Origin: Cordylochernes scorpioides
Lineage: Eukaryota; Arthropoda; Arachnida; Pseudoscorpiones; Chernetidae
Reading direction: 5' to 3'
Length of the DNA stretch: 64,000 nt
Assembly (NCBI GenBank): GCA_030710605.1
Contig: CP092872.1
Location: 7,181,763 to 7,245,762, forward strand
The notes under the pieces were generated by a model. The model searched no databases, was not told the origin of the DNA, and worked only from the letters and a program-made list of their open reading frames with translations. The first letter of the stretch is position 1. Every line of letters begins with the position of its first letter. Both the position numbers and the translations under genes were made by a program. Below are positions 1 through 58,387 of the stretch, one piece after another.

Positions 1-190
1 GGATACAGGATGAGCAGCATTTGTACTCCATGTTAGGAGCGGCTGCACATGGTGTCTGTTCCTTATGTCAGAGGCGGCCATTTCTTTTGGAGCTAAGTCG
101 GCCTTCCACTGAGTAGTACTCCCAGTCTTAAAGACAAAGGCAGACGCATTCTACTTCACCCAGACCCTAGATTGGGTGGAGATAAGAAAG
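1..190 (+). mobile_element. SINE-like repeat (Sx family), 3' part
   Basis: This repeat recurs at 1120, 7402, 28630, 32325, 54470, 57127 and 62998. It usually ends in a GATAAGAAAGAAG-type tail like that of one LINE family here. The window cuts off its 5' part, which begins with a CCGGTCCCAAGCCCGG-type block in complete copies. It lies in the intron just downstream (minus strand) of exon 12. Confidence 0.75.
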
Positions 191-222
191 AAGAAGAAGA
201 AGACAAGACCTCCTCCACTCAC

Positions 223-510
223 CCAGCAGGCTGTCCCGAACAAGGGTGAGCAGAAGCCGGATGCCAGCCTCATCCATCATGGCTGGGGCCATCCTCTCAA
301 ACAGCTGCTTCAAGGTCATGTAGTAGGTGTTGGTCTGCACCGGGAGGCCCAGTGTCTTCAGCAGCTCCTTCACGCTGCGTTCTATCTCTCCGCAGGATGC
401 CGCACCCATCACCACTACCTCCATGTGGCTCAGTAGCCGCGCATTCTGATCCAGAGAGGAAACAAACCGCCGTGTGTATTCTGCTGTCCGCAAATTCTGC
501 GCCAGGTTCT
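223..510 (-). CDS. Pds5: Pds5 exon 12 (copy A)
   Basis: 288 bp encode about residues 527-623 of the composite protein. The acceptor is TTGCAG just above 510 and the donor GTGAGT just below 223. The 3' splice site was chosen inside a longer open frame because only there does the phase join exon 11, giving a KNLAQNLRTAEY start that matches the KNLPDP-type stretch of animal PDS5. It covers mid-protein HEAT repeats and ends DSLLG. The copy B donor is GTAAGT, a one-base difference. The next exon of copy A lies outside the window. Confidence 0.92.
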
Positions 511-774
511 CTGCAACAATCAGTTCAAGCTGTTTAGGATGGGATCTCGAGTGAGGAGAGACTTGGAGAAACAATGGACAAGATACAAAAACAACAGCGA
601 TACAATATCAATAAACTAAAGCAAAGAACCTTCACACAGTGCACAATATGTGCTTCCACAAACATTTTTTTTTTATTATCGAGTGACCTTTTGAATTTTA
701 GAAAGTGTAGTGTGGGGTCCAAAAAATACAATGATTTCTCCCATATAGGGATGATCCCTCCATTGCTGTACATA
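511..774. other. Intron 11 sequence, nothing recognised
   Basis: Pds5 intron between exons 11 and 12 without a recognisable repeat apart from poly-T. The long minus-strand open frame that runs upstream of the exon 12 acceptor is intron read-through. Confidence 0.6.
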
Positions 775-939
775 CACAGTTAAACCTGTCTATAGCGCCC
801 CCTCTTGGGACTCACCAAAATAGGGTGCTATAGACAGGTCACTTTTAATGTAAATTGTATCATCCTACGTATTTAAAATCGGGCGCTATAGAGAGGAAGG
901 CGCTATTTAGAGGGGGTGCTATAGACAGGTTCAACTGCA
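775..939. mobile_element. MITE, CTGTCTATAGCGCC-type inverted repeats
   Basis: About 165 bp with terminal inverted repeats of the form ACAGTTAAACCTGTCTATAG and internal repeats of a GCGCTATAGA motif. Other copies lie at 26851-27031 and, in duplicate copy B, at 55371-55535. The ends resemble the TACAGT termini of Tc1/mariner-pogo elements. It sits about 12 bp from the exon 11 splice donor. Confidence 0.8.
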
Positions 940-959
940 TATAGGAATGAACTACTCAC

Positions 960-1057
960 TGGAGAGTAGATGGATCTTGAGGTTGATGTTCTTGGAACGT
1001 TCCTCAGTCCGGGGCTGCTGCAGGTATTCCACGATGGCACGGAACTGGCTTCGGACC
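960..1057 (-). CDS. Pds5: Pds5 exon 11 (copy A)
   Basis: 98 bp, acceptor TGTGCAG above 1057 and donor GTGAGTAG below 960. It encodes VRSQFRAIVEYLQ and the following NINLKIHLLS, about residues 495-527. The splice phases join exon 10 (AT|G) and exon 12 (A|AG). Longer open frames here run into repeats and are not coding. Confidence 0.9.
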
Positions 1058-1119
1058 CTGCACACAGGCCAGTTCCCTCATCTCTCTTTCTTCACATGTT
1101 ACTTTATGGCACAAAGTGT

Positions 1120-1502
1120 CAACTCCATTAATGCCAGTCCCAAGCCCAGATGAAAAAGGAGGAGAAAGAGCAGTAACAAGCTCACAAAAAAAGCCAAGCT
1201 CAGCTAGCCCGGCTGATAGTACCCTGTAAGGGCTCCAGGGATACAGGATGAGTCTGTACTTCATGTTAGGAGCGGTGAGAGGCTGCATATGGCTTATGTA
1301 CCTCATGTCAGAGGCAGCTATTTCATATTGAAGCCAAGTCGACCCGCTACTGAGTAGTGCTCCCAGACAAAAGCAAACACTTTCTACTTCATCCAATCTC
1401 ATTATGGATGTCAAATCTCCTTTGATGAGCTCTATTCATCCTCAGAAGGCACCACTACAGGCTTGATACCTTATATGATTGATTGGAGATAAGAAAGAAA
1501 AA
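1120..1502 (+). mobile_element. SINE-like repeat (Sx family), near full length
   Basis: Begins with the CCAGTCCCAAGCCC block and ends with TGATTGGAGATAAGAAAG. Its 3' end matches the 3' end of the LINE family seen at 30420-30745, suggesting it is copied by that LINE. A matching copy lies at 55716-56098. Confidence 0.75.
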
Positions 1503-1770
1503 GAATATATAAAGCCTACCCCCCACTTTGGTAAACACCAAAAAATTACTGATTTTACCCAATGTGTGGGTGAGTATCTCCAGGAGAGACTCTAGACTGA
1601 CTGACCATCCAGTAGATGCTAAAGCTTAGCGAGTAAAAGATGGGTTAAGGTTCAAATGAAATTAAAATGATGAGAAATCTTGCATCAAGAAGATTTGGTA
1701 CACATGGAACAGGCCCTGATAATCGAGGGCAGGTAGTTAGCAAATATTTTTATTGCAAGTTCACCACATG
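1503..1770. other. Intron sequence, nothing recognised
   Basis: Part of the Pds5 intron between exons 10 and 11. No gene, splice-bounded frame or known repeat end is visible; a short segment resembles the sequence following the Sx repeat at 57405-57460. Confidence 0.5.
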
Positions 1771-2078
1771 TTTTTTTTTTTGCTTATCCCTAGTACACGT
1801 GGGACAGGCCATGATAATCATGGTGGGTAGTTAGCGACTGCTTTTACTGTAAGTGCACCACATGTCTACACATGTGAAAAGCAGTTCGACTTTGCACTTA
1901 CTAATGCCAGAGCCCCGTTTGGTTACTTGCACTCGCTGGTGGGGTTGGACTTTTGCAAGAATCGGGGGCCATTGGAGCATTTTTTTTTCTTTAAACAGAA
2001 AAAAGTGTCCAATGCGGGTTCGAACCCGGGTCCTAGTGGTCGAAAACCAAAGGTTTAACCAGCCTTCCACCGACCCCT
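1771..2078 (-). mobile_element. tRNA-derived SINE
   Basis: On the minus strand the element starts with a tRNA-like head (GGTCGGTGGAAGGCTGG, box-B GGTTCGAACCC). A conserved body of about 200 bp follows, ending CTAGGGATAAGCAAAAA. At least ten related copies occur in this window. The head is too diverged from a cloverleaf to be a working tRNA. Confidence 0.88.
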
Positions 2079-2297
2079 CACCACATGTACTACACATGTA
2101 GAAATAAAATTCGACTTTTGCACTTACAAATGTATCAGAGACTGGTTTGGTTACTTGTACTCATTAATGGGGTTAGACTTTTGCTAGAATTGAGGGCCAT
2201 TGAGGCAAATTTTCTTCATAAAAAGAGCCCAATGTGGGGTACAATGCCATGTTGCGGCTGTTTAAGATCTCTCAACAGTTTATACCATTCTTCCACC
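2079..2297 (-). mobile_element. Degenerate tRNA-derived SINE copy
   Basis: A second, older copy of the same SINE abuts the previous one. The body and the head-proximal CCAATGTGGGG remnant are recognisable but full of substitutions. Confidence 0.65.
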
Positions 2298-2597
2298 AAA
2301 CCGTTCCTAATATTGCTGAATCATAATTTATGTGTTTTGTTAAAAGCTACAATTCCAGATATTTCTACGATGGAATACTCTTGTGATTTACATAGTATTT
2401 CAGTATTGTCTATGTTAATTGACAGGTCTGTCTATATATCACAGCCATGTTGGATTGTTGGTTGGCTAGTGGTTATTGGATAGGACAGGCCATCTGCTGA
2501 TGTACATATAATTTGTCCTTCTTTTATTGTTTTATATCTTTAGGTAATAAAGGATCTTTCTCTTCTTCTACGAATCTATATATTTTTTCCCAACACA

Positions 2598-3018
2598 CAA
2601 GGTAATAAGACCAAATCCAAATAAACAAATATTGTGTGACGTTTCAGTAACAGCGTTGTTACCATCTTCAGACAAAGTATTGAATGAGAAGATTTACCAA
2701 TTTAAATAAAATTTCTCATTCAGTACTTTTGTCTGAAGATGGTAACAACGCTGTTACCGAAACGTCACACACTATTTATTTATTTGGATTTGGTCTTATT
2801 ACCTTGTTTCAGTACTTTTGTCTGAAGATGGTAACAACGTTGTTACCGAAATGTCATACACTATTTATTTATTTGGATTTAGTCTTATTACCTTGTTTCA
2901 GTACTTTTGTCTGAAGATGGTAACAACGCTGTTACCGAAACGTCACATACTATTTATTTATTTGGATTTGGTCTTATTACCTTGTGTTTATAATCTAGAA
3001 TCCAAATTGTGCCTTATC
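2598..3018 (+). mobile_element. Fold-back family insertion with 14-bp target duplication
   Basis: A 421 bp insertion flanked by direct repeats TTTTTCCCAACACA at 2584-2597 and 3019-3032. Copy B has one uninterrupted copy of that site, so this is a clean insertion. It holds one minus-strand arm and three plus-strand arms, each with CTGAAGATGG, a GGTAACA/TGTTACC stem and GAAACGTC. Target duplications of this length fit retroposition rather than cut-and-paste transposition. Confidence 0.85.
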
Positions 3019-3315
3019 TTTTTCCCAACACATTTATTCTTTCAATCAAATTGTATAAAATTGCTTTATTTTTAATAATAATATATATTTCATTTATCAC
3101 GTGTATTATATTTCTACAGAATATTATTATCTATTATATTTGACACTCTACTGTGACGACACATCATTTTGAAAGTTGGCGCTAGGATTGGCTAATCGCA
3201 GCAGATAGCCATGGACGGGGAAGATTTGGGATCACCAACAACGAGGATGATAGCAAATAAATATAATAACTCATTTTTTCACATTTTATTACGGAAACCC
3301 GCTCGGGAAACATCT

Positions 3316-3827
3316 TCTATATATATAAAAATGAATGTTTGTATGTTTGTTTGTATATATGTCCAGTATACAAATTCGCAGTAGTTCACTAATTCAAACC
3401 AAAATTTCCATACATAGGTAAAAAAATACGGGGAAGACGATAGGCTATTTAAAAATATATATAAATCAATTATTAAAACTATATATTTTTAGTCAGAAAA
3501 TGATGATGACGATATTGCTGTATCATGTTTGATTATCAGATACAAAATTATATCGGGAAAAAATTCCAAAAAGCTGAGACCACGGGTGAAACCAGTTCAT
3601 TATTTTGTACGCAGGAACAAAATTCTAACAGAAAAACATTCATTCGAGCAGAAAACAAAAGCCAGATCATCTTTCTATAAAAATATCGCTTCTCAGACAC
3701 AAAGTTTGGAGCAGGGACGTTTCACAAGAGTGACATCCACGGCGCCAATTTATAATTGTAACGAATAGTATTTGAATCAAAACATTTAATAGGGTAAAAC
3801 CCGGGCGTTGCCCGGGTCATTCGGCTA
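3316..3827 (+). mobile_element. Non-autonomous Helitron
   Basis: Starts TCTATATATATAAAAATG. It ends with a hairpin CCCGGGC-GTT-GCCCGGG followed about 8 bp later by CTAG and then T, the classic Helitron 3' end. No Rep/helicase is encoded. An 80-codon open frame (3529-3768) inside has no recognised homology. The first 170 bp are shared with the Helitron at 27347-27700. Confidence 0.8.
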
Positions 3828-3897
3828 GTGTAAAGAAAGAAGAAATAAAGGTCGAGGGCCTTACAAAATTGTAACTGGTTGTAACAACATCACATTT

Positions 3898-4148
3898 GTG
3901 ATAAGGCACAATTTGGATTATAGATTATAAACACAAGGAAATAAGAACAAATCCAAATAAACAAATAGTGTGCGACGTTTTGGTAACAGCGTTGTTACCA
4001 TCTTCAGACAAAAGTATTGAATGAGAAGATTTACCAATTTAAATAAAATTTCTCATTCAGTACTTTTGTCTGAAGATGGTAACAACGCTGTTACCGAAAC
4101 GTCACACACTATTTATTTATTTGGATTTGGTCTTATTACCTTGTGTTT
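3898..4148. mobile_element. Fold-back family, near-perfect inverted arms
   Basis: Two arms of about 120 bp face each other around a short AAGATTTACCAATTT spacer. Each arm has the GGTAACA/TGTTACC stem next to GAAACGTC. It is flanked by AATATCACATTT (4149-4160; AACATCACATTT at 3886-3897; both copies exact in duplicate copy B), a 12-bp target duplication. Confidence 0.82.
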
Positions 4149-4254
4149 AATATCACATTTACATATTCAAATTGAAATCATCAAGAAGTGGTGTATATGG
4201 GAAAATCACATGGACAAAACACCAAGATCTGGACAATGTGGTAGACAGACTTAC

Positions 4255-4287
4255 ATGTTCTGGCTCTTGAGCAGCTCAATGAATGCC
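4255..4287 (-). CDS. Pds5: Pds5 exon 10 (copy A), 33-nt microexon
   Basis: Only 33 bp: acceptor TGTCCAG above 4287, donor GTAAGTC below 4255. It encodes AFIELLKSQNM, about residues 484-494, which aligns with the ALNEMWKCQNM-type segment of animal PDS5. Phases join exon 9 (AA|G) and exon 11 (AT|G). Both duplicate copies are identical here. Confidence 0.88.
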
Positions 4288-4342
4288 CTGGACACAAAAA
4301 AATGGAAGTTGGTGTTCCAACGTGTAGATGGAAGTGTCTTAC

Positions 4343-4456
4343 TTGACGGCATTGTCATCCACGGTGGCAAAGAGGTGGTAGAGCTTCTGCATGCGCTCCT
4401 CCAGAGGGCTCTGGTGAGGGATGAGACAAGTGTGGAGGATCCTTTCTACCAGCATC
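4343..4456 (-). CDS. Pds5: Pds5 exon 9 (copy A)
   Basis: 114 bp encoding MLVERILHTCLIP...EERMQKLYHLFATVDDNAVK, about residues 446-483. Acceptor TGTGCAG, donor GTAAGAC. The LVERI-x-EERM-xx-LY pattern is diagnostic of PDS5. One synonymous difference (an Asp codon) from copy B at 58832-58945. Confidence 0.92.
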
Positions 4457-5093
4457 CTGCACAGCATCATTGTTTAGCATAGTCATCATCCCTGGGGTCC
4501 TACGCCCCATCATCATACATCCCCATCACAAAATTTGAAATTAATTGGTGGTATTAAAATTACTTCATTGCCAACCATTCAGAAGTCTGAAATTTTGTCA
4601 ACTTGCAAGGTCATCATGTTTGAACAAGTTTCAGACTTCTAGATATTCTAAAAATGATCACACAATTCAAAAGAAAAAATTGAAAATAGTCAATTCCCAA
4701 CCACCCAGAAGTATGAAATTTTGTCCATCTTGCATTGTTACCAGGTTTTTGAACAAGTTTACCAATTTTCAGACTTCTAGGTGCTCTGTAAGGAATAATA
4801 AATATTAATGACATAAATTGTGGACAGAAAGAAATGGAAGTAAGAAAAACTTTTAATAAGGGAAGGACAAAGCCTCCTCCTCCAAATGTATTCAATTTAT
4901 TTCTCTAACACTGCTCTAAATCAAAGAAAGATGTAAGCAATGTTACAATGTAGTGTCATGACAATGCAGGTTATAAACTCAGTTAAAATACTGACATTCC
5001 GGGAAGAACACATGTGAATAGTTCCAGTGGCCTCACTAATTTTCAATTGCCATCTACATTAAAATTATTATTCTTACAAAATTTAAAGTTATG
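4457..5093. other. Intron 8 sequence, nothing recognised
   Basis: AT-rich Pds5 intron. Two imperfect direct repeats (CCAACCATTCAGAAGTCTGAAA and a relative near 4700) are visible. In copy B a 1.28 kb DNA element is inserted in the equivalent place (59145-60427); here the site is empty. Confidence 0.6.
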
Positions 5094-5345
5094 TTGATGT
5101 TGATTCTTATCCCCTTGTGCAAAGATCACACAAATTCCATGAGTTCATGCTCTTCGATCTGTTTTATGATAAGCAGCAGCCTCTCCCAAAGGTCCTGTTT
5201 AGTAAATCTAATGGAAGCCAAAATGTGTTCTGGAGCTGCAGGTGCCAAACTACATTTTGGGCAAGTGGGGTAGATTTTGTTATTATTTTCCATCTTCAAT
5301 GGCTTGAGATGGCCTGTTCTAAATCTTGTTAGTGTTGTTTGGTTC
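5094..5345 (-). mobile_element. Jockey/I-like LINE 3' end (family L1)
   Basis: On the minus strand it encodes the C-terminal tail of a LINE ORF2: TLTRFRTGHLKPL, then CPKC...PEHILASIR, a Cys/His zinc-finger-like tail, ending EEHELMEFV and a stop. The tail is CAAGGGGATAAG. It is 5'-truncated and ends about 40 bp downstream of the exon 8 donor. Further copies at 46915, 47225, 48285 and 60878. Confidence 0.8.
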
Positions 5346-5382
5346 TGTCTATTTATAAGGTAAAGTATAAATGCTAGGGTAC

Positions 5383-5680
5383 CTGTCTTCCAAAGCTGTC
5401 TGATAGTAGACATGGAGGATCTTGTCCTTGATCCAGGAGATACAGTCCCTGGTGGACTCTGGGAGGTCTTTGCTCTCTGCATGCTGCTTGTACAAGTAGG
5501 CCAAACCCAGGAGAGCCTCCTTCCTGATCTTGAACTTCTTGTCCAGCGTGCGCTCCTTTACAAAGTTGAGCAGCACATCATTGACTGCGCTGAAGTCCTT
5601 TTTGGCTGCGCTGATGATGGCCATCACCACCTCGTAGCGCACGTTCTCTTCAGGATCATGCTGCCTCAACCGCAGCTGGT
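5383..5680 (-). CDS. Pds5: Pds5 exon 8 (copy A)
   Basis: 298 bp, acceptor TTTTCCAG above 5680, donor GTACCC below 5383. It encodes the most conserved block of the protein, about residues 347-446: QLRLRQHDPEENVRYEVVMAI, AAKKDF, ERTLDKKFKIRKEALLGLAY and WIKDKILHVYY. These are HEAT repeats of the cohesin-regulator hook. Identical in sequence to copy B by eye. Confidence 0.97.
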
Positions 5681-5764
5681 CTGGAAAACACATTGCAGAT
5701 TAAAGTAAGAACATCTTGTAGATGTGATTAGGTAACATTGTATCAGTTTACTTGAAACCTAGGG

Positions 5765-6060
5765 TTCGGTGGACCTAGTTGTCTGAATCATTGGCTTTCA
5801 ACTGCTACAAACTGCGATCAAATCCCGTATTGGGCACTTTTTCTAATTTATATATATTTTTAATAATGCTCAAATGGCCCATGATTCTTGCAAAAGTCTG
5901 ATCCCACCAGGAAGTGCAAGTAACCAAAGAGGGCTCTGGAAAACTTGTAAGTGCAAAAGTTGAACAGCTTTTCACCTTTGTAGACATGTGATGCACTTAC
6001 AGTAAAAGCAGTCACTTCACCAACTTCTACCCACCATAACCTGTACCACATGTACTAGGA
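5765..6060 (+). mobile_element. tRNA-derived SINE, old copy
   Basis: Plus-strand copy with tRNA-like head (TTCGGTGGACCTAGTTG, box-B remnant GATCAAATCCCG), body, and CATGTACTAGGAATA end. Several substitutions and a missing terminal A-tail mark it as old. Shared with copy B at 61550-61848. Confidence 0.8.
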
Positions 6061-6608
6061 ATATTTTTTTAAAAAGCTTAAAACATTTTTTTTACCGACA
6101 AGAACCTTTTCTCAAGAAAACCTTGCGTAACCTATAAACCAACTATTCCCAGCCAATAGCTGTCACAGTACAATGACTTCAGGGGATTCCTGGTAATGAA
6201 CTGGCAGTCTCCCTGACCAAATCTGGAGCTCTTGGCCACCCTGATGCCAGACACTACTACTAGATGATTTCCACCATCCCATCAATGTCATCAGCTATGG
6301 CTATGACCCATAACTGCTAGAGAGCAGTGGAATCAAGTCACAAGAAGCCAGCAGTCCTTGATTCAACCTTCCCCGAATGGCTTTCTCACTTCACAGCAGC
6401 CACAAGGGCACAAGAAATAAAGTTCCAAATGGACCTCTCAAGACAAATTTTCTTCCACAAGGAAGTTTGGTACATTGACTTCATGAAAGATTTAATGCCT
6501 CATAAAGAAAGAAAATATTTTGAAAACCAAGGCTTTTTTTCTTCAAATTATTCTCTTAGATAACTAGCATTGGTGTGAAGACTTTTAGGTAGAAAAAATA
6601 CAAAAAAA
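6061..6608. other. Intron 7 sequence, nothing recognised
   Basis: No repeat end or exon is visible. A 78-codon plus-strand frame (6327-6563) has no recognisable domain and is present, unchanged, in the other copy. It may be old repeat sequence. Confidence 0.5.
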
Positions 6609-6780
6609 AACACAAGGTAATAAGACCAAATCCAAATAAATAAATAGTGTGTGACATTTCAGTACTTTTGTCTGAAGATGGTAACAACGCTGTTACCGGA
6701 ACGTCACACACTATTTATTTATTTGGATTTGGTCTTATTACCTTGTGTTTATAATCTATAATCCAAATTGTGCCATACCA
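6609..6780. mobile_element. Fold-back family copy
   Basis: Inverted CACAAGGTAATAAGACC and GGTCTTATTACCTTGTG arms; the minus arm is truncated so the plus-arm hammerhead-like core (GGTAACA/TGTTACC then GGAACGTC) is the only one present. Confidence 0.75.
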
Positions 6781-7080
6781 TACCAAAAAAAAGATTATAG
6801 AGAGTATTTTAGAAGTTTCAGGAAATATTTCATCCTACACAAGGAACTCCTTATAAACTTTTCACCATTATATGGTTTGTAATTGTTCCAATAGATGGCA
6901 GTGTGACATTGCTTGTTTAAGAATACTCCATTACAAGGTTTCTAAGTGAACAGAATTACACAGTTTCTAATTGGGGGATATCTAGGCCTCTTTTTATAGA
7001 ATTGGAAACAATATTAATTACTGCTGATTGAGGCAAACAATAATTGGGACTTCTGTTATTTGGAAGTACTGATAAACTGA

Positions 7081-7400
7081 ACTGCTGATAATTGGGGTTA
7101 CTGGTGATTAAAACTGCTGATAATTGGGGTTACTGGTGATCAAAACTGCTGATAATTGGGGTTACTGGTGATTAAAACTGCTGATAATTGGGGTTACTGG
7201 TGATTAAAACTGCTGATAATTGGGGTTACTGGTGATCAAAACTGCTGATAATTGGGGTTACTGGTGATTAAAACTGCTGATAATTGGGGTTACTGGTGAT
7301 TAAAACTGCTGATAATTGGGGTTACTGGTGATTAAAACTGCTGATAATTGGGGTTACTGGTGATTAAAACTGCTGATAATTGGGGTTACTGGTGATTAAG
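7081..7400 (+). repeat. 32-bp minisatellite, 10 units
   Basis: Ten head-to-tail units of 32 bp (ACTGCTGATAATTGG, GGTTACTGGTGATTAAA), nearly identical. Copy B has only four units (62866-62993). Degenerate units continue near 7605-7680. Confidence 0.95.
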
Positions 7401-7401
7401 A

Positions 7402-7600
7402 CTAACTCTGCCTTTGCCGGTCCCAAGCCCGGATGAAAAAGGAGATGGGGAAGCAGTAACAAGCTCACTAAAAAACCTGGGCTCAGCTGGCCCGGTTGAT
7501 AATACCCTGTAAGGGCTCCTAATCCAGGGATACAGGATGAGCAGCATTTTGATGCACAACTTGATATCCTAATATGATTGAGTGGAGATAAGAAAGAAAG
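7402..7600 (+). mobile_element. SINE-like repeat (Sx family), internally deleted
   Basis: Has the CCGGTCCCAAGCCCGG start and the ATTGAGTGGAGATAAGAAAG end but lacks the central GCGGCCATTTC block. Inserted in or next to the minisatellite. Confidence 0.7.
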
Positions 7601-7889
7601 AAAAAAGATAATTAAGACTGCTGATAATTGAGGTTACTAAGACTGCTGATAATTGGGACTATTGTGATAATTGGGTCATTTATTATTGACGCGTCTCCAA
7701 TTAACAAGAAGTGACGCCAGCATAAAATTTTCTAGTTAGGATTTCAAAGTGATAAGTTTCAATCTCCTGTGAAAAGATGGGAATAGATGAAATATAAAAA
7801 TGACCAGGACAAGTCAAATCTCTCAGTATACTGGGCAGAACAGATGACGACACAGACATCCAACAGTATGGACTGAAGGAAGGACCTAC

Positions 7890-8100
7890 CAATGATGTCT
7901 CCTCGAAGTTCCGGGTGGTTGAGGAGGAAGTGCATGGAATACTGCACACAGCGAGTCCGCACTCGGACCCCAATGTCATTGAAGCGGCCCAGGAAACACT
8001 TCCACAGCAGGTTGTTCTGCGTGGCCAGGTCAGAGTCTTTGTCAGAGAACATGCGAGCCAACAGCTTGGTGACATCCAGCCTCTCCTTCTCCTGGTTGCT
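7890..8100 (-). CDS. Pds5: Pds5 exon 7 (copy A)
   Basis: 211 bp, acceptor ATGTAACAG above 8100, donor GTAGGTCC below 7890. It encodes SNQEKERLDVTKLLARMF, SDKDSDLA, LGRFNDIGVRVR and CVQYSMHFLLNHPEL, about residues 277-347. The CVQ-SMHFLLNHP wording is closer to insect Pds5 than to vertebrate PDS5A/B. Identical to the copy at 63482-63692. Confidence 0.96.
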
Positions 8101-8214
8101 CTGTTACATGCATGCCATTGATAAGTAAGGATTTTTTTTTAGCCAAAATGTTAACCACATTTTTTAACTAGAACATTAGCTCATTAGATGAATGGGTTGA
8201 GAACAACAGCCAAA

Positions 8215-8624
8215 AGCAGCCATTTATGCTCTTAAAAATTGTTACATTAGCCACGACGCCCTGCTTAAAAATATAGCAAAAGCTATGAATGACCTCAATC
8301 CTGAAAGCTCCATAACCTTCCAATGGATCCCATCACATGTGGGAGTACCTGGCAATGAAAGGGCTGGCTCACTGGCTAAAGCAGGAGCATCTAAAGAAAA
8401 TAACCCAAAAATATCCTCAACCCTTCCAACAGCAAATGATCACTCTAACAGACTGAAAATAAAATTTAATCAAGATTGGCAAAATAACATCAAACACCGC
8501 TGGTTCGATGGGAAAACTCCCCTCCTGAAAACCAACTCACAACTTAACAGATCAGACTTCACCATGCTTTCCCTTCATAGAACAGGCCATCTACGTCTAG
8601 ACCTGGGACAAGGAAAAAAAAAAA
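8215..8624 (+). mobile_element. LINE RNase H fragment with poly-A and 15-bp target duplication
   Basis: An open frame here encodes the end of a LINE RNase H domain: FQWIPSHVGVPGNERAGSLAK. The usual catalytic Asp of the ERAD-type motif is Gly here, so it would be inactive. The fragment ends in a 12-A run and is flanked by AGAACAACAGCCAAA at 8200-8214 and 8625-8639. It lacks both the ORF start and the normal LINE 3' end. Confidence 0.85.
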
Positions 8625-8673
8625 AGAACAACAGCCAAAGTTTTACATAAATATATGTCATAATATTTAGAAA

Positions 8674-8852
8674 TACAGTAGAACCTCCCTTAAGCAGACA
8701 CTCTGCTAGCGGACACCTCTCCACAAAGGAAAGTTTTTATTTGCAAAATTACCATTTTTACTATTTAGAAACTCTCCGATAAGAGGACACATCTCCCTAA
8801 AGAACACTTTGGCTCTGCAATTAGGTGTCCTTTACAAGGAGGTTCTACTGTA
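8674..8852. mobile_element. MITE, TACAGTAGAACCTCC inverted repeats
   Basis: 179 bp between TACAGTAGAACCTCCC and GGAGGTTCTACTGTA, with internal repeats of AGGTGTCC/GGACACCT. TA ends fit Tc1/mariner-pogo integration. The most numerous MITE in the window. Confidence 0.88.
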
Positions 8853-8945
8853 TATAAATAAAATTGCTTGTGTGGGAGTACAAGGAAAAAAGGGTAGTTA
8901 GCCGGGTTAAAACAACCTCCTTGGTAAACAAGTGTCAAGTCTTCA

Positions 8946-8963
8946 CCCCCCCCCCCCCCCCCC
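8946..8963 (+). repeat. Poly-C run
   Basis: 18 consecutive C. The true length is uncertain because such runs are error-prone in sequencing. Confidence 0.9.
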
Positions 8964-9336
8964 TAGGGGATTTATCTGACTCAAAGCGGCTTAAAAAGGC
9001 TGGATGTGATGATCAAATGACAGTTCACACCGAGGTAACACCAGTTGTTCTAGGGGTTGTCCTCAGACCTTCTCTCTCTCCTCCCCGATCTACTCCCCAC
9101 AGGTTTTTGCTTCTGTCTCCTGTGTGTGTCCTTACCACTCTTCACACAACTACCACGACTGCTTTACAAATCACCACATATCTATATATACCTAAGTTGT
9201 CACACACTATCAATTTATTTGGATTTGATCTTATTATCTTGTAGTTTTGGTTATAACAATTCTAAATCTTCAAAAGATGTTGCTATAATGAGATTCAACT
9301 ATAATTCACTTTACATTTATAATAAAATTTATGGGT

Positions 9337-10979: not shown

Positions 10980-11225
10980 AGGGGACTTTAATTCCAACAC
11001 CTCCCTTTGATTGCACCACGCTGATGAGGGCCAACAGCCCGAAACGCGTCCATGGTTAGCTTTTCTTAATTAATCAAGAATGGGCCAAATCTGGAATAAT
11101 AAAAATCAACGAGAATAGTTGATATTTATTCCGATAGATGGCGCAAGCCATCAGCAACTTTCAGTTGCACGATAAGGAGATGCCTTTAACTTAATTTATG
11201 CACCTTATCACAGTACAATGTAATA
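10980..11225 (+). mobile_element. Retrozyme/Penelope-like repeat carrying a hammerhead
   Basis: Contains, in order, the hammerhead core (11015-11056), an AATTAATCAAGAA palindrome remnant, a GATGGC-GCAA-GCCATC hairpin (about 11137-11152) and the GTTGCACGATAAGGAGATGCC block. The same order occurs on the minus strand at 21541-21925, where the end block also recurs at the beginning. No protein is encoded. Confidence 0.7.
11015..11056 (+). ncRNA. Minimal type I hammerhead ribozyme core
   Basis: CTGATGA (11021-11027) is followed by stem II GGGC/GCCC with loop CAACA, GAAA (11041-11044) and CGCGTC (11045-11050). Stem I pairs ACCACG (11015-11020) with CATGGT (11051-11056), five of six positions pairing. 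All invariant hammerhead residues are present. Stem III is the self-complementary ACGCGT with no loop, as in the minimal ribozymes of Penelope-like elements, which work best as dimers. Predicted cleavage is after C11050. Activity is inferred. Confidence 0.82.
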
Positions 11226-11307
11226 TTTGTGCTATTTTTTTACCTCCCTTTGGTGTTGAAGACAAAACGTCCACTAGCAGTGAATGTTGCGATCAATTAA
11301 TAATCAT

Positions 11308-11520
11308 GATAAAGCACAATTTGGATTATAAGAAACAAGAAAATAAGACCTAATCTAAATAATTTAATAGTGTGTGACTTTTTGGTAACAGCATTGTCAT
11401 CAGACAAAAGAATAAAATGATTTTATTATAAATTTTAATCTTTAGTCTGCTGATGGTAACAATGCTGTTACCGAAACGTCACACACTATTATTTGGATTA
11501 GGTCGTATTTTCTCTTGTAT
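11308..11520. mobile_element. Fold-back family copy
   Basis: Inverted arms with GATAAAGCACAATTTGG and TTATAAGAAACAAGA starts. The plus-arm core reads CTGCTGATGGTAACAATG, a deletion relative to the commoner CTGAAGATGG. Confidence 0.75.
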
Positions 11521-11932: not shown

Positions 11933-12028
11933 CCTAATTATTTCAGAGTTCAGGGAATACCCTGAGAAAGATTGTTACAAGATATTTGCAGGATTAAAGA
12001 TAAACTAGAAGTGAAGGGGATTACTCAC

Positions 12029-12236
12029 AGCCTGGATGTAAGGCTCAAGGTTGGAAGCTCCCCTCTTGATGAGGTCGCGCGCCAGGATATACGCATGCTT
12101 GTTCTGTGTCTTGCGCGGCTCAATGATCTGGATGAGCACTAAGTCAAGCAGCTCCTGGGAGATGACGTCAGCCTCTGCAATCAGGGGGGAGAGCAGGTCC
12201 AACATGAAGGCTTTCACCTTGGAGGCATGGTCGTCA
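12029..12236 (-). CDS. Pds5: Pds5 exon 5
   Basis: 208 bp, acceptor GATGTCCCAG above 12236, donor GTGAGTAA below 12029. Encodes DDHASKVKAFMLDLLSPLI, AEADVISQELLDLVL, IIEPRKTQNKHAYILA and LEPYIQA, about residues 160-229. The SQELLDLVL segment is a strong match to animal PDS5. Splice phase is consistent with exons 4 and 6. Confidence 0.96.
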
Positions 12237-12309
12237 CTGGGACATCCACACCATCTTTTAACCTCTACAGCTTGTGCCATCACAACTGGCTGCTATCATG
12301 GATTGAGAG

Positions 12310-14870: not shown

Positions 14871-14925
14871 TATTAAACACAATATTAATTTATTTATTTG
14901 TATTTGGTCTTATTACCTTGTGTTT

Positions 14926-15324
14926 AACGCTATTACAGAAACGTCACACAGTATTTGTATTTGGTCTTATTACCTTGTGTTTAACGCTATTACAGAAACG
15001 TCACACACTATTTGGATTTGGTCTTATTACCTTGTGTTTAACGCTATTACAGAAATGTCACACAGTATTTGGATTTGGTCTTATTACCTTGTGTTTAACG
15101 CTATTACAGAAACGTCACACAGTATTTGGATTTGGTCTTATTACCTTGTGTTTAACGCTATTACAGAAACGTCACACAGTATTTGGATTTGGTCTTATTA
15201 CCTTGTGTTTAACGCTATTACAGAAACGTCACACACTATTTGGATTTGGTCTTATTACCTTGTGTTTAACGCTATTACAGAAACGTCACACACTATTTGG
15301 ATTTGGTCTTATTACCTTGTGTTA
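14926..15324 (+). repeat. 57-bp tandem array, 7 units
   Basis: Units start at 14926, 14983, 15040, 15097, 15154, 15211 and 15268. Each contains AACGCTATTACAGAAACGTC and the GGTCTTATTACCTTGTG arm of the fold-back family, so the array grew from an internally deleted copy. Because 57 is divisible by 3, repetitive open frames of 135-159 codons appear; they are not genes. Confidence 0.93.
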
Positions 15325-18089: not shown

Positions 18090-18360
18090 GCCTATCCTGA
18101 CCACAAGCACATGTGTTTTTAGATGGCAGAGCGCCATCTAGTGGAACAGAAATCAACTAAACTTTGATTTAACCTGTTTCCTGTTATTTAGCCAACCCAA
18201 TTTCTTGATAAATCAAGAAAAGTAATCCACGAACGCGTTTCGCACTGTTGGCATTCATTAGCGTGGAACAGGCTGTACCACTGCGACCAAAAAGATTTTT
18301 GGTCCCAGAGGCTTCTTGAGAAACCAAGAAATGGGTATTTAAGGCCAAACTTGCGTAAAT
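18090..18360 (-). mobile_element. Diverged hammerhead-bearing repeat
   Basis: Minus-strand relative of the repeat at 11 kb. Stem I CCACG/CGTGG, GAAA and ACGCGT survive at 18227-18266, but the core reads CTAATGA (G5 lost), so it should be inactive. Two companion hairpins are kept: TTTCTTGAT/ATCAAGAAA (18200-18220) and AGATGGC/GCCATCT (about 18121-18139) with a changed loop. Confidence 0.65.
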
Positions 18361-18451
18361 ACGCTTAACACATGAATTGTACTATATTGTACTTGGGAAA
18401 ACTACTTAGAGGTGCCGCACAACAACAAAGAATATAGATTGAGGGACTTAC

Positions 18452-21540: not shown

Positions 21541-21925
21541 AGGCACAATTTGGATTATAGATTATCTCTTTATCGTGCAAATGAAAGTAGCTGATGGCTT
21601 GCGCCATCTATCGGAATAAATATCAACTATTCTCGTTGATTTTTAATTATTCCAGAATTGGCCAAATACCCATTCTTGATTAATCAAGAAAAGCTAACCA
21701 CGGATGCGTTTCGGGCTGTTGGCCCTCATCAGCGTGGTGCAAGCTGTACCTCAACTACTAAAAAACTGGTTATTCAGACATCCTGAAAAATTATGAAACG
21801 GGTAGTTAAGGCCAGAATTGCGTGAGACCACGACACAATGTGAAGAAATAGTACAAATGTGATATCGTACTGGGATAAGGTGCATAAATTAAAAAAAGGC
21901 ATCTCCTTATTGTGCAACTGAAAGT
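21541..21925 (-). mobile_element. Hammerhead-bearing repeat with partial head-to-tail duplication
   Basis: The block ATCTCTTTATCGTGCAAATG (21564) recurs as ATCTCCTTATTGTGCAACTG (21901), 337 bp apart, so the unit is just over one monomer repeated head to tail. Between lie the hammerhead core, a TTCTTGATTAATCAAGAA palindrome (21674-21691) and GATGGC...GCCATC. This is the layout of retrozymes and of Penelope pseudo-LTRs. Confidence 0.72.
21697..21738 (-). ncRNA. Hammerhead ribozyme core, minus strand
   Basis: Minus strand: ACCACG, CTGATGA (21726-21732), GGGC-CAACA-GCCC, GAAA (21709-21712), CGCATC, CGTGGT. Stem I is a perfect 6 bp. The only departure from the 11 kb copy's core is CGCGTC to CGCATC, weakening the self-complementary stem III. 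Probably a slightly decayed ribozyme. Confidence 0.75.
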
Positions 21926-28509: not shown

Positions 28510-28630
28510 TACTCAAGGTAATAAGTATATGATGTTTCAGCATTGTTACCAACAATAATACTATTTATTAATTTAGATTTGGTTTTATCAACTTGTATAT
28601 GTATATTTATGATCCAAATTGTACCTAATT
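28510..28630 (+). mobile_element. Fold-back family, degraded arm
   Basis: AAGGTAATAAGTATATGATG to GATCCAAATTGTACC; hammerhead-like core deleted. Confidence 0.6.
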
Positions 28631-28985
28631 TAACTCCCCCTTTGCCGGTCTCAAGCCCGGATGAAAAAGGAGGAGGGGAAGCAGTGACAAGCTCGCTAAA
28701 AAACCTGGGCTCAGCTGGCCTGGCTGATAGTACCCTGTAAGGACTCCAGGGATACAGGATGAGCAGCGTTTGTACTCCATGTTAGGAGCGGCTGCACATG
28801 GCGTCTGTTCTTCATGTCAGAGGCGGCCATTTCTTTTGGAGCTAAGTCGGTCTGCCACTGAGTAGTGCTCCCAGTCTTAATGACAAAGGCAGACGCATTC
28901 TACTTCACCCAGTCATGATGGTTGTCAACTTTACAAGCTTGATACCCTTATATGATTGAGAGGAGATAAGAAAGAAAAAGACACC
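28630..28985 (+). mobile_element. SINE-like repeat (Sx family), full length
   Basis: From GCCGGTCTCAAGCCCGG through AGGCGGCCATTTC to ATTGAGAGGAGATAAGAAAG. Useful reference for the family's structure: a G/C-rich start, a CATGTCAGAGGCGGCC middle and the LINE L2-like tail. Confidence 0.8.
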
Positions 28986-41360: not shown

Positions 41361-42340
41361 ATGCACCCTGGAGATGACCCCTCACCCAGCCAGACGCCGT
41401 TGCCGTCTGCGCTATACCATTTGGAGAAGTTTGAGGGAAATGGGCTCATACCATTCGACAAGTTCATCCGGGACTTCGAATTGGTCTACGATGTGAAAGC
41501 CCTGGATGATTCTAGGAGAAGGATCCTCCTGGACAATCACCTTCGAGGAGCTGCGAGAGAGTTCGCCCTCCAGGCCTCCCAGATCAAACTGGGATACAAC
41601 GAATTAAAGGAAAACCTGGAACAGAGATTCTCCAGGAGGGCCCCAAGAGAGAAGCCAGGAAGAAGTTCTTCTCCTGTAGACAAAGGCCCGGAGAAAAGGT
41701 TAAGGAATACGCGAACAGAGTGCGGAGCCTTGCCTCAGAAGCCGAGTCAGATGGCCTGAGGATCGACATCACTGAGGTCGCTGATATCTTCCTCACTGGA
41801 CTCTGTCCAAACCTGTGGCAGAGAGCCCACCAACTCCAGAATGAGTCATGGGAGGTAATTGTGAGCAGTCTCCACCAGATCGAAGAAAGGGATGACGAGT
41901 ACTCCAGATGCCAAATGGAAGATGAAGAGGGGAGTGCCAGGAAGTTGAGGGAGTTGACGAGCCAGATGGCCCGGCTGGAATCCAAGTTAAAGAACCTGGA
42001 GACGGAAAACCAGGACCTGAGGAGGACCCACAGGGAGCAACCCAGGATAAATATGGGAAACAGGTGGGACACCAACCAGGCCAGAGGTTTCCAGCGGAGA
42101 GGAGGTTCCGCTCAGAACAACCAGCCCACTATACAAGGGACCAGGCAGGAGAGACCCCAACAGAACCCCAACGGTAGAGCCCCACAAGAACAGCGCAAGG
42201 AAGGCCCTCCAGCAACAACCAAGGGAGGAGCGCCAAGGAGGTATGAGGGCCCCGAAGCAACGCGGACACCCATCAGGTGCTTCAGATGCGGGGAGACAGG
42301 CCACATGGCAAGAATTTGCACAGCCATGACAAAAAAATAG
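41361..42340 (+). pseudogene. gag: Gypsy-like gag, one frameshift
   Basis: Structural protein gene of an LTR retrotransposon. ATG 41361 opens a capsid-type region (FIRDFELVYDVKALDD). The frame breaks between about 41630 and 41650 in a G/C-rich run, and the rest continues in another frame (FLTGLCPNLW). A Leu/Glu-rich coiled-coil segment follows, then a Pro/Gln/Gly-rich linker and a CCHC zinc knuckle, CFRCGETGHMARIC. The gag stop is 42338-42340. Confidence 0.85.
42331..42337 (+). promoter_or_regulatory. Putative -1 frameshift site at gag end
   Basis: Seven A's, in gag frame A-AAA-AAA, lie directly before the gag TAG. The protease frame is -1 to gag and open across this point. The heptamer is a recognised type of slippery sequence, so the protease is probably made by -1 frameshifting. 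Confidence 0.6.
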
Positions 42341-42885
42341 GTCCGGCTTGCCTCAAAGCAGGGAATGGGGGAACTCTAGCCGGCCTACCTGTAATCACTT
42401 GTACATTTGTAGATAAAGGTTGGTCTCTGAGCAATAGGACTATCAGACTAATTATCGATACAGGCTCAGAGGCCAACATTGTAAATATAGATTCCTTGGA
42501 TATTAGCGCTGAAGGTTTGGGTAAACCCACCTTCCTTAAGGGGATTAGTGGGAGTGAGTTAAGGTCACTGGGGAGTGAGTTAATAGAGGTTAGGGCCTAT
42601 ATCAGGGGAAAACCCATCAGGGAAGTAAAAACAACATTTGAATACTGCCATCTAGGTGGGCTAGGCTTTGATGGAATCCTAGGTATGCCAGGATTCAAGG
42701 CTCTAAGACTCACTCTCAACCATGATGGAAGCGTCAGATCAGACTTTGAGCAGGACGAAGAACCGACTAAGTCGGCCTTCCTGTCCTCGTTACAGGCCAG
42801 TGAGGTGCCTGTCAGACCACCCAGTATACCTCTACATAAAATCAGGACAGGGGAAGACGTCCTTAGGGCATATAGTCACTGTTCT
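42334..42885 (+). CDS. pol: Retrotransposon protease (pol start), cut by gap
   Basis: Frame -1 to gag, open to the gap. Carries the aspartic protease active site IIDTGSEANIV (about 42455) and, downstream, FDGILGMPGF, the family's ILG motif. Reverse transcriptase and later domains are not visible because the sequence ends at the Ns. The frame after the gap is unrelated. Confidence 0.85.
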
Positions 42886-42985
42886 NNNNNNNNNNNNNNN
42901 NNNNNNNNNNNNNNNNNNNNNNNNNNNNNNNNNNNNNNNNNNNNNNNNNNNNNNNNNNNNNNNNNNNNNNNNNNNNNNNNNNNNN
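42886..42985. other. Assembly gap, exactly 100 N
   Basis: Exactly one hundred Ns, the conventional placeholder for a scaffold join of unknown length. Left of it is mid-pol of a retroelement; right of it is unrelated sequence leading to the last visible Pds5 exon. Confidence 0.98.
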
Positions 42986-43650
42986 GATCAATAGCTAATG
43001 TTGCAAGCTCTTCTAATGGCTTCACAGTCCAAATAAGTCTATTAGATAATCAAGAGCACACATATCTATTTGAATTGATTTGAAGTCTCACAACAATTTG
43101 AACGCTCAACAACTTTCCAGTAACAATTGGTGGGGTGTTACTTGTCTTCACACCAGTTCTTGGAGGTTGTGAAAAGCTAGCTTTCTCAACACCTCTTCAT
43201 CAGGACAATATATTTTTCTTATGATGCATCAGCATGCCATATCTGTTATGAATATTTGGAACTATTATAAACACGTATGATTCTTTTGAAAATTAAACAA
43301 TTTCTACTGCCCTTACTGCGATATGGTAGATTAAATTGGCGAAACCACTGGGAGGGTCCACCACTGATGAGCCAGGCCCTCCCTTTAATTTTTCCATTGC
43401 AGTAAGGGCAGTAGAAATTGTTTAAATTTTCAAAAGAATCATACGCGTCTATAATAGTTCCGAATATTCATATCTTTTTCTGTTTGTTATGATGTATTCT
43501 AGGATGTACTATAGTGGCAAGGCTGGGTTTGGCAAGTAATGGTTTAGTTTGTACTGAGGCAAAGGGAAGAAAACTTGAACCTCAAACTTCTTGAAAGGGT
43601 TTCAACGGGACTGAGAACTTTAACATGAACCAATTAGGACAGGCACGTAC
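42986..43650. other. Contig start, inverted CPYC repeats
   Basis: 43225-43330 (plus) and 43325-43480 (minus) are CPYC-family copies facing each other. No coding exon for the Pds5 C-terminal tail was found between the gap and exon 20. Confidence 0.55.
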
Positions 43651-43817: not shown

Positions 43818-44028
43818 CTACAAGGTAATGAGACCAAATCCAAATAAATAAATAGTGTGTTACGTTTCGGTAACAGCGTTGTTACCATCTTCAGACAAAA
43901 GTACTGAATGAAAATTTGTCAAAGATGGTAACAATACTGTTACCGAAACGTCACACACTATTTATTTATTTGGATTTGGTCTTATTACCTTGTGTTTATG
44001 ATCTATAATCCAAATTGTGCCTTATCAA
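43818..44028. mobile_element. Fold-back family copy, both arms
   Basis: Minus arm with GGTAACAGCGTTGTTACC and plus arm with GATGGTAACAATACTGTTACC, both next to GAAACGT; ends ATAATCCAAATTGTGCCTTATC. In intron 19. Confidence 0.82.
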
Positions 44029-53820: not shown

Positions 53821-54469
53821 AATATGTGAATAACCTTTACATATTATTCATTGTTTCAATTATCATGAACTAGGTTGCCCTTGTTGAGCGGTACCTATTA
53901 ATGTGATTTGAACCAGAACATTATGGGTGCACCACCACATCATTAAAAGTGATGAGTATTACAGCCTGTTGAAGGATGTTACTGTCTGAAAGCTTGCATC
54001 TCTTCATTAAGGAAACTTGTCACTTTTATTCTCCTCTTAGCAATGATATCCTGCTATTCATCCTATTGTTATATGATAGAGGTAAGCAAACTTTTGAGTT
54101 GGAAGAGTCAAAAAAATTACAATTTACCAAATTTCAAAGGTTTTTAAAGAGCCACAAATTTTTTTCTTGGCAACAATAAATAGTACTCGCATAAATAATA
54201 TTTGTGTATGGAACTATATAAAGAGCCGCGTGTGACTCGTGAACTTCAGTTTCCCGACCCCTGTCATATGATATTGGAGTTCTATAAATGGTGGATTAAA
54301 CTGGAAAGACTGTGATGTCAAGCAAACTCATGGGCAGTTGTTCAACAAAAGAGTGATGAGAGACTACCTCAGAGAGAGACCAGGCATTTTTAGCCATGGC
54401 TATGTTCTCAACTGTACTTCAATGTGTATTTCAAACCATGGAGCTGGTGTTCTTCCATGGTACAAGACC
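53821..54469. other. Intron 12 sequence, nothing recognised
   Basis: A GAGCCGCGTGTGACTCGTGAA block near 54225 resembles 13205-13225 (GCGGCTCGTGAGCCAC), so an old dispersed repeat may be present. No exon. Confidence 0.45.
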
Positions 54470-54790
54470 TCCAACTCCACCTTTGCCGGTCCCAAGCCCG
54501 GATGAAAAAGGAGGAGTGGGAGCAGTAACAAGCTCACTAAAAAACCTGGGTTCAGCTGGCCCGGCTGATAGTACCCTGTAAGGGCTCCTAATCCAGGGAT
54601 ACAGGATGAGCAGCGTTTGTACTCCATGTTAGGAGCGGCTGCACATGGTGTCTGTTCCTTATGTCAGAGGCGGCCATTTCTTTTGGAGCTAAGTCGGCCT
54701 GCCACTGAGTAGTACTCCCAGTCTTAAAGACAAAGGCAGACGCATTCTACTTCACCCAGACCCTAGATTGGGTGGAGATAAGAAAGAAGA
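54470..54790 (+). mobile_element. Sx repeat, full length (copy B)
   Basis: Extends the fragment that starts the window: CCGGTCCCAAGCCCGG to GGTGGAGATAAGAAAG. The 5' 128 bp lie outside the window in copy A. Confidence 0.78.
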
Positions 54791-54818
54791 AGAAGAAGAC
54801 AAGACCTCCTCCACTTAC

Positions 54819-55106
54819 CCAGCAGGCTGTCCCGAACAAGGGTGAGCAGAAGCCGGATGCCAGCCTCATCCATCATGGCTGGGGCCATCCTCTCAAACAG
54901 CTGCTTCAAGGTCATGTAGTAGGTGTTGGTCTGCACCGGGAGGCCCAGTGTCTTCAGCAGCTCCTTCACGCTGCGTTCTATCTCTCCGCAGGATGCCGCA
55001 CCCATCACCACCACCTCCATGTGGCTCAGTAGCCGCGCATTCTGATCCAGAGAGGAAACAAACCGCCGTGTGTATTCTGCTGTCCGCAAATTCTGCGCCA
55101 GGTTCT
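54819..55106 (-). CDS. Pds5: Pds5 exon 12 (copy B)
   Basis: 288 bp, same splice acceptor as copy A. Donor GTAAGTGG here versus GTGAGTGG there. One synonymous base change (a Val codon in the MEVVVMG segment). The protein is identical: SSLDQNARLLSHMEVVVMG, TLGLPVQTNTYYMTLKQL, FERMAPAMMDEAGI. Confidence 0.93.
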
Positions 55107-55370
55107 CTGCAACAATCAGTTCAAGCTGTTTAGGATGGGATCTCGAGTGGGGAGAGACTTGGAGAAACAATGGACAAGATACAAAAACAACAGAGATACA
55201 ATATCAATAAACTAATACAAAGAACCTTCACACAGTGCACAATATGTGCTTCCACAAACATTTTTTTTTTATTATCGAGTGACCTTTTGAATTTTAGAAA
55301 GTGTAGTGTGGGGTCCAAAAAATACAATAATTTCTCCCATATAGGGATGATCCCTCCATTGCTGTACATA

Positions 55371-55535
55371 CACAGTTAAACCTGTCTATAGCGCCCCCTC
55401 TTGGGACTCACCAAAATAGGGTGCTATAGAGAGGTCATTTTTAATGTAAATTGTATCATCCTACGTATTTAAAATTGGGCGCTATAGAGAGGAAGACGCT
55501 ATTTAGAGGGGGTGCTATAGACAGGTTCAACTGCA
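55371..55535. mobile_element. MITE, CTGTCTATAGCGCC family (copy B)
   Basis: Counterpart of 775-939, with a few substitutions, so it was inserted before the two copies diverged. Confidence 0.8.
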
Positions 55536-55555
55536 TATAGGAATGAACTACTCAC

Positions 55556-55653
55556 TGGAGAGTAGATGGATCTTGAGGTTGATGTTCTTGGAACGTTCCT
55601 CAGTCCGGGGCTGCTGCAGGTATTCCACGATGGCACGGAACTGGCTTCGGACC
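55556..55653 (-). CDS. Pds5: Pds5 exon 11 (copy B)
   Basis: 98 bp, identical by eye to 960-1057; same splice sites. Confidence 0.9.
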
Positions 55654-55715
55654 CTGCACACAGGCCAGTTCCCTCATCTCTCTTTCTTCACATGTTACTT
55701 TATGGCACAAAGTGT

Positions 55716-56098
55716 CAACTCCATTAATGCCAGTCCCAAGCCCAGATGAAAAAGGAGGAGAAAGAGCAGTAACAAGCTCACAAAAAAAGCCAAGCTCAGC
55801 TAGCCCGGCTGATAGTACCCTGTAAGGGCTCCAGGGATACAGGATGAGTCTGTACTTCATGTTAGGAGCGGTGAGAGGCTGCACATGGCTTATGTACCTC
55901 ATGTCAGAGGCAGCTATTTCATATTGAAGCCAAGTCGACCCGCTACTGAGTAGTGCTCCCAGACAAAAGCAAACACTTTCTACTTCATCCAATCTCATTA
56001 TGGATGTCAAATCTCCTTTGATGAGCTCTATTCATCCTCAGAAGACACCACTACAGGCTTGATACCTTATATGATTGATTGGAGATAAGAAAGAAAAA
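55716..56098 (+). mobile_element. Sx repeat (copy B)
   Basis: Counterpart of 1120-1502 with scattered substitutions. Confidence 0.74.
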
Positions 56099-58311: not shown

Positions 58312-58387
58312 TGTACAATACAAAGAAAGAAGAAATAAAGGTCGAGGGCCTTACAAAATTGTAACTGGTTGTAACAATATCACATTT

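What the first reader, a model, noticed from the sequence alone, without database searches (positions are those of the whole stretch)
11015..11056. Canonical minimal hammerhead ribozyme in a Pds5 intron region
All invariant core residues are present in order (CTGATGA, closed 4-bp stem II, GAAA, a UH cleavage site) with a 6-position stem I having one mismatch. Stem III is the loopless palindrome ACGCGT. Minimal type I hammerheads of this kind are established for Penelope-like elements and retrozymes. This copy lies on the strand opposite to Pds5, so it would act in its own transcript rather than cut Pds5 RNA.
Basis: partly seen in the sequence, partly recalled or inferred. Interest (0 to 1): 0.82.

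Follow-up and report, generated by a model that had tools for sequence, protein, structure and literature searches.

The report
Retrozyme copy with hammerhead ribozyme
The motif is a real but worn copy of a 338-base self-cutting RNA parasite present thousands of times in this animal genome, and the way its copies are inserted suggests that a Penelope-type element pastes it in from both DNA strands.

Summary
The hammerhead core at 11015-11056 is real. It lies in a 232-bp insertion (11010-11241) with an 11-bp target duplication, in a PDS5 intron on the opposite strand. A 26-nt version of the core occurs 11,942 times exactly in the window's 2.62-Gb genome, in a noncoding unit of about 338 bp that also forms tandem arrays. 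This is a metazoan non-LTR retrozyme, a known kind. The window copy is a decayed fragment; Rfam does not call it at its threshold.

The insertions are informative. (1) 3' ends fall at two sites about 48 nt apart. (2) All 64 two-arm inverted insertions are head-to-head; 55 have one arm at each site, 4 both at A, none both at B, 5 unclassed. (3) Targets are AT-rich, with duplications near 12 bp. (4) Penelope-like elements (PLEs) of the same genome show the same head-to-head asymmetry (9 of 9 pairs). (5) Reverse-transcription stops peak at the predicted ribozyme cut (12 against 2.4 expected). I infer that PLE machinery inserts the retrozyme by asymmetric two-strand target-primed reverse transcription, and that the ribozyme cuts in vivo. 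No enzyme, RNA or cleavage was observed directly.

The parts
10999..11009 (.). left target-site duplication ACCTCCCTTTG
   Evidence: exact 11-bp repeat at both ends
11010..11241 (+). retrozyme copy 1: 5'-truncated single arm, 93% identical to the 338-bp unit, 3' end at site B
   Evidence: BLASTN to unit, unit 299..338/1..201
11015..11020 (+). hammerhead stem I, 5' side
   Evidence: sequence
11021..11044 (+). hammerhead core CTGATGA, stem II GGGC-CAACA-GCCC, GAAA
   Evidence: 26-nt version 11,942 exact copies in own genome
11044..11049 (+). stem III palindrome ACGCGT (one pair closing CGCG; could pair fully with a second molecule)
   Evidence: sequence; reading by likeness to the salamander type in PMC7229834
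11050..11051 (+). predicted cleavage 11050^11051
   Evidence: motif; 5' ends of arms elsewhere in the genome peak at the equivalent site
11051..11056 (+). stem I, 3' side (CATGGT; the commonest form among fetched copies has CGTGG here, 59 exact, so a CpG was lost in this copy)
11242..11252 (.). right target-site duplication ACCTCCCTTTG
21564..21925 (-). retrozyme copy 2: 362 bp (1.07 unit), same core at 21709-21732, palindrome mutated (CGCAT), 13-bp flanking repeat, inserted inside a family-2 repeat
18122..18372 (-). fragment of a sister retrozyme family, 74% identical
6608..6780 (.). family-2 (PLE-like) head-to-head pair, short end/tail end
11307..11509 (.). family-2 head-to-head pair about 60 bp from copy 1, tail end/short end
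43820..44028 (.). family-2 head-to-head pair, short end/tail end

Best explanation
The motif is the hammerhead of a non-autonomous retrozyme. Its noncoding RNA (338 nt) cuts itself at the site equivalent to 11050^11051, probably as a dimer through the ACGCGT palindrome, and exists as multimers, cut linear forms and probably circles. A PLE-encoded reverse transcriptase/endonuclease, acting in trans, cuts both strands of AT-rich DNA about 12 bp apart and starts cDNA synthesis on the retrozyme RNA at two fixed internal sites, A (unit ~151) and B (~200), typically one per DNA end. The two minus-strand cDNAs are joined in the middle, giving a head-to-head inverted insertion flanked by a duplication; often one arm is very short or missing. 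The window copy is an old single-arm, B-ended product in a PDS5 intron, probably without function. Shown: element, copy number, two ends, asymmetry, duplications, stops at the cut. Inferred: PLE as the enzyme, both-strand priming, circular template, cleavage in vivo.
For: Copy number: 11,942 exact cores, 16,785 exact copies of another 38-nt unit segment. Unit 338 bp, GC 41%, no long ORF, linear fold -118.2 against -75.3 for shuffles, z -9.1. Pairs: 64 two-arm inverted insertions in 141 loci, all head-to-head: A/B 55, A/A 4, one unclassed end 5, B/B 0. With both arms classed and at least 88% identical in the first two sets: 39 of 42 A/B against 20.9 expected, P 2e-9; flanking repeats median 12 in pairs and 9.5 in single arms against 6 for shuffled flanks; left-flank GC 19% against 33% for the loci. 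Minor alleles shared by the two arms of an insertion 24 of 50, 5.9% between insertions. One arm of 1911 nt with units 0.3% apart. 5' ends: 12 of 108 arms in the 5 nt at the predicted cut, 2.4 expected, P 9e-6. PLEs of the same genome: 27 close head-to-head and 0 tail-to-tail neighbours in 100 listed; of 9 PLE pairs whose flanks I fetched, 8 carry the tail on exactly one arm and the ninth, another PLE family, has one arm about 25 nt longer by the position of its flanking repeat. Published PLE biochemistry: both strands cut and extended, AT-rich targets, two adjacent internal RT start sites (PMC11167929).
Against: No meaningful sequence similarity was found between the unit and the PLE loci, so the partner family is not identified. 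A-B spacing is about 48 nt; the PLE tail is 32-38 nt in most pairs. About half the clusters are single arms (82 of 153), 4 pairs are A/A, and 7 clusters are complex, some with a + - junction (L014, L025, L086); 1 of 100 listed core places has a close tail-to-tail neighbour. PAc in vitro showed no start-site difference between strands (PMC11167929), so strict one-each use is not its published behaviour. Stops at the cut could also be pausing at stem I. All sampled retrozyme loci lie on one contig, C1, plus the window.
Confidence: 0.74

Rival explanations
1. Retrozyme mobilised by a LINE with ordinary twin priming (as in L1): the second DNA end anneals at random inside the RNA and gives an inverted arm.
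For: Twin priming (recalled) also gives head-to-head arms, a duplication and a single template; duplications and AT-rich targets fit LINEs too.
Against: In twin priming the inner start is variable. Here both outer ends sit at two fixed sites and are used one each. A twister-bearing repeat of the same genome shows no head-to-head neighbours among 100 listed places, but it has only 4 neighbours within 6 kb and was not characterised, so this control is weak.
Confidence: 0.15
2. Self-priming on an antisense template, as proposed for inverted PLE copies in rotifers (PMC3846280, passages).
For: Head-to-head arms are the published PLE observation behind it.
Against: As I read it, it predicts mirror-like arms; here the two arms usually have different 5' ends and different 3' ends (31 of 36 A/B).
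Confidence: 0.05
3. A DNA transposon or satellite that happens to hold a hammerhead-like sequence, spread by DNA-level processes.
For: Tandem arrays exist, and arrays can grow by recombination.
Against: 5' ends scatter while 3' ends are fixed, some arms end at the ribozyme cut, the two outer ends are not inverted repeats of each other, and helix pairs covary between sister families.
Confidence: 0.05

Closest known systems
Metazoan non-LTR retrozymes (Cervera & de la Pena 2020, PMC7229834), closest the 330-bp axolotl type with HHR_Amex1
   Same: type I hammerhead, unit of 170-400 bp, low GC, no LTR, tandem copies, highly paired RNA, weak stem III of one pair with a palindromic tetraloop
   Different: here most sampled copies are single or head-to-head inverted arms with two fixed 3' ends; this layout is not described in the parts of that paper I read (1-4 of 6)
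Penelope-like elements (PMC3846280, PMC11167929)
   Same: head-to-head arms, a tail on one of the inverted arms, short duplications (8-10 bp in the passages I saw), AT-rich targets, two nearby start sites, a hammerhead nearby
   Different: retrozyme has no ORF, a fuller hammerhead and an A-B spacing of about 48 nt instead of about 31 nt
Twin-primed L1 insertions (recalled)
   Same: inverted 5' part, duplication, one template
   Different: fixed outer ends at two sites here

Membership tests
metazoan non-LTR retrozyme | type I hammerhead with all core residues | tested here: met
   Rfam gathering threshold not reached
metazoan non-LTR retrozyme | unit of about 150-450 bp occurring as tandem repeats | tested here: met
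   338, 339, 347, 350-bp spacings; window copies themselves are solitary
metazoan non-LTR retrozyme | low GC, noncoding | tested here: met
   GC 41%, longest stop-free stretch 49 codons
metazoan non-LTR retrozyme | no LTR, primer-binding site or polypurine tract | not tested
   none noticed in the 338-bp unit; no search was made
metazoan non-LTR retrozyme | self-cleavage at the predicted site | tested here: inconclusive
metazoan non-LTR retrozyme | expressed as circular RNA | not testable with these tools
   no RNA data
Penelope-like element | RT plus GIY-YIG open reading frame | tested here: not met
   unit is noncoding; it works like a PLE in insertion but is not one
minimal PLE hammerhead | lacks helix III or the stem I/II loop arrangement of the full type | tested here: not met
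   outer stem I pairs present and covarying; stem III is weak, so this rests on stem I
mobilised by PLE machinery | head-to-head arms, one short and one tailed 3' end, short duplication in AT-rich DNA | tested here: met
   resemblance of layout, not proof of the enzyme

The most novel reading that the evidence does not exclude
Metazoan retrozymes are substrates of PLE proteins, and PLE insertion is intrinsically two-ended and asymmetric: a dimer starts reverse transcription at site A on one DNA end and at site B on the other, copying the same (circular) RNA, so the old PLE 'tail' is the mark of the second start site. The same genomic copies record ribozyme cutting in the germ line.
Probability: 0.5. 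Interest if true: 0.78.

Novelty: new member of a known kind. Interest (0 to 1): 0.62.

Why it matters
Which machinery spreads animal retrozymes is stated to be unknown (PMC7761336, passages: no motif that would identify the autonomous partner; PLEs are candidates). Fixed double 3' ends, their one-each use and the shared layout with PLEs give a concrete, testable answer, and could explain the PLE tail. The stop peak at the cut is a way to read ribozyme activity from genome sequence alone.

Tried and rejected
Rfam at gathering threshold: nothing in the window. Folding the 61-nt window motif: no signal. Sequence similarity between the unit and PLE loci or family 2: none meaningful; the stronger hits in L060, L068, L069 are retrozyme copies lying nearby. 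Family 2 (CTGAAGATGG...CGAAACGTC) as a PLE: layout fits (ATG at stem II, cut 28 nt on; two ends about 31 nt apart), but no full-length element with it was found, so it stays 'PLE-like'. Rfam mir-2513 and other miRNA matches are below threshold; those over family 2 are hairpins made by head-to-head arms. The first form of the caller was spoiled by an internal 18-bp palindrome and replaced. Species was not determined. Core conservation against flanks was not computed because the samples were chosen by exact core or exact neighbouring segment. The hammerhead variants were found with a pattern that demands the structure, so their counts are not a test of conservation.

Sampling limits: the core set is part of the first 100 listed of 11,942 places, plus the window; the second and third sets are places among the first 100 listed that were mostly not already fetched, so they are poor in exact cores; I do not think this can make a peak at the cut, but it biases stop/cross ratios, which I do not quote. 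Clusters that reach the end of a locus were dropped: 2, 3 and 0 in the three sets. Seven complex clusters were kept out of the pair counts. Arms more than 45 bp apart count as separate clusters (for example L026, a + arm and a - arm). L001-L003 are near-identical duplicates; L013/L022, L041/L042 and L168/L169 are related copies and were left in the totals, except that one search dropped L002, L003 and L022. Filters on identity (85 or 88%) drop older copies. Arms longer than a unit are commoner in the core set (23 of 89) than in the other two (3 of 78, 5 of 45), partly because those loci were cut short.

Full report
What is there. It lies in a 232-bp insertion, 11010-11241, with the 11-bp repeat ACCTCCCTTTG on both sides, between PDS5 exons on the opposite strand (Pfam PDS5 at 12008-12292, and at 7759-8103 and 5349-5699). 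A second copy is at 21564-21925 (-). Rfam does not call either at its threshold. The genome does settle it: 11,942 exact copies of the 26-nt core, none of the reversed control.

The element. In an array (L009) the core recurs every 338 bp; other arrays have 338, 339, 347 and 350 bp. The unit has 41% GC and no stop-free stretch above 49 codons and its RNA, folded as a linear strand, is far more paired than shuffles (z -9.1). A sister family (74% by BLASTN; 77-86% over mapped positions) keeps the core and swaps stem II pairs (GGGC/GCCC to GCGC/GCGC). On the unit's predicted fold, 318 of 362 scored pair cells in six sister copies stay paired (88%; 35-43% with partners slid by 1-3), with 31 cells changed on both sides, including the outer stem I helix; these are few, related sequences, and 44 cells are broken. 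The features match metazoan non-LTR retrozymes (PMC7229834, parts 1-4 of 6 read).

How copies are inserted. I aligned 141 loci (56 in the core set including the window, 53 and 32 in two further sets) to the unit. 3' ends fall mainly at site A (GATGCCTTTTTCTTAA, unit about 151) or site B (TACTATTTTTTCA, about 200); 5' ends scatter. Of two-arm inverted insertions 64 of 64 are head-to-head: A/B 55, A/A 4, one unclassed end 5, B/B 0. In the 42 pairs of the first two sets with both arms classed and at least 88% identical, 39 are A/B where independent use predicts 20.9 (P 2e-9). Flanking repeats have a median of 12 bp in pairs and 9.5 in single arms against 6 for shuffled flanks; left flanks are 19% GC. 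The two arms of one insertion share rare alleles in 24 of 50 cases, 5.9% between insertions, so they probably come from one RNA or one source. Arms longer than one unit are 31 of 212, and in 10 of the 12 arms above 400 nt the units agree more closely with each other than with the consensus (L019 and L046 are the exceptions), as a circular or multimeric template would give. Single-arm clusters number 82, 8 of them with an unclassed end; some carry a few bases of a B-end arm at the 5' side (L027, L041, L042; read by eye). Seven clusters are complex, some with a + - junction (L014, L025, L086). Among listed places, close neighbours are 6 head-to-head and 1 tail-to-tail in 100 cores, and 13 and 0 in 100 segment matches, within 1.5 kb.

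The ribozyme's footprint. In the two sets not chosen by the core, 12 of 108 arms stop in the five bases around the predicted cut, where the local rate predicts 2.4 (P 9e-6); this is the highest 5-base window from -100 to +60. I read this as reverse transcription running off RNA ends made by the ribozyme. Pausing at stem I is not excluded.

The likely partner. The genome has many GIY-YIG frames (146 matches among 150 scored of 17,015 candidates); L077 also has a reverse-transcriptase domain. One PLE family has a minimal hammerhead with 1,111 exact copies of a 37-nt pattern; among its first 100 listed places 27 neighbours within 6 kb are head-to-head and none tail-to-tail. I fetched the outer flanks of 9 PLE pairs, chosen because two GIY-YIG matches faced apart. 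In 8 the tail is on exactly one arm; in the ninth (L110/L111, another PLE family) one arm is about 25 nt longer by the position of a 13-bp flanking repeat. By these repeats the tailed arm is 32-38 nt longer in six pairs and 50 in one (L102/L103, whose short arm ends early); L112/L113 lies in a tandem repeat and was not measured. Family 2 in the window and loci shows 11 short/tail pairs, 2 short/short and 4 with an unclassed end among head-to-head neighbours, and 5 tail-to-tail neighbours that may be nested insertions; one short/tail pair is a duplicate through the window's own duplication. The PLE layout with a tail on one inverted arm is published (PMC3846280, passages), and a purified PLE protein cuts and extends both strands and starts at two adjacent internal sites (PMC11167929, parts 1-2 of 4). 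As a weak control, a twister-bearing repeat of this genome has no head-to-head neighbours in 100 listed places, but only 4 neighbours within 6 kb in all.

Verdict. The interest is in the insertion signature, which points to PLE proteins as the mobilising machinery, a question called open in PMC7761336 (passages). My searches of the held library listed no paper that I recognised as describing this signature in retrozymes; most subscription papers are not held, and I opened only four of the listed papers.

Noticed in passing
window 28627-28681 (+), also 54468-54522, 7399-7450, 62992-63043: Type-P1 twister ribozyme-like sequence (44.5 bits, gathering 67.2); its 22-nt core pattern has 16,009 matches in the genome. 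Possibly the 5' part of another retroelement (a guess).
   Followed up: partly
window ~150-9000 and ~54700-64000: The PDS5 exons and surrounding repeats occur twice in the window (near-identical ORFs): a tandem duplication or an assembly artefact.
   Followed up: no
window 2719-2985 and 14895-15323: Tandem arrays of 89-bp (3 copies) and 57-bp (7.5 copies) units made of family-2 sequence; the 89-bp unit keeps a hammerhead-like motif.
   Followed up: partly
window 41516-43083 (+): Gag-like ORF with a zinc knuckle (Pfam zf-CCHC; Retrotrans_gag just under its cut-off) followed by another frame with a run of unknown bases.
   Followed up: partly
window 7080-7403 and 62865-62996: 32-bp tandem repeat (AACTGCTGATAATTGGGGTTACTGGTGATTAA) next to the weaker twister-like matches.
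   Followed up: no
L077: PLE with the GIY-YIG domain before the reverse transcriptase, as a 3.3-kb head-to-head pair.
   Followed up: partly
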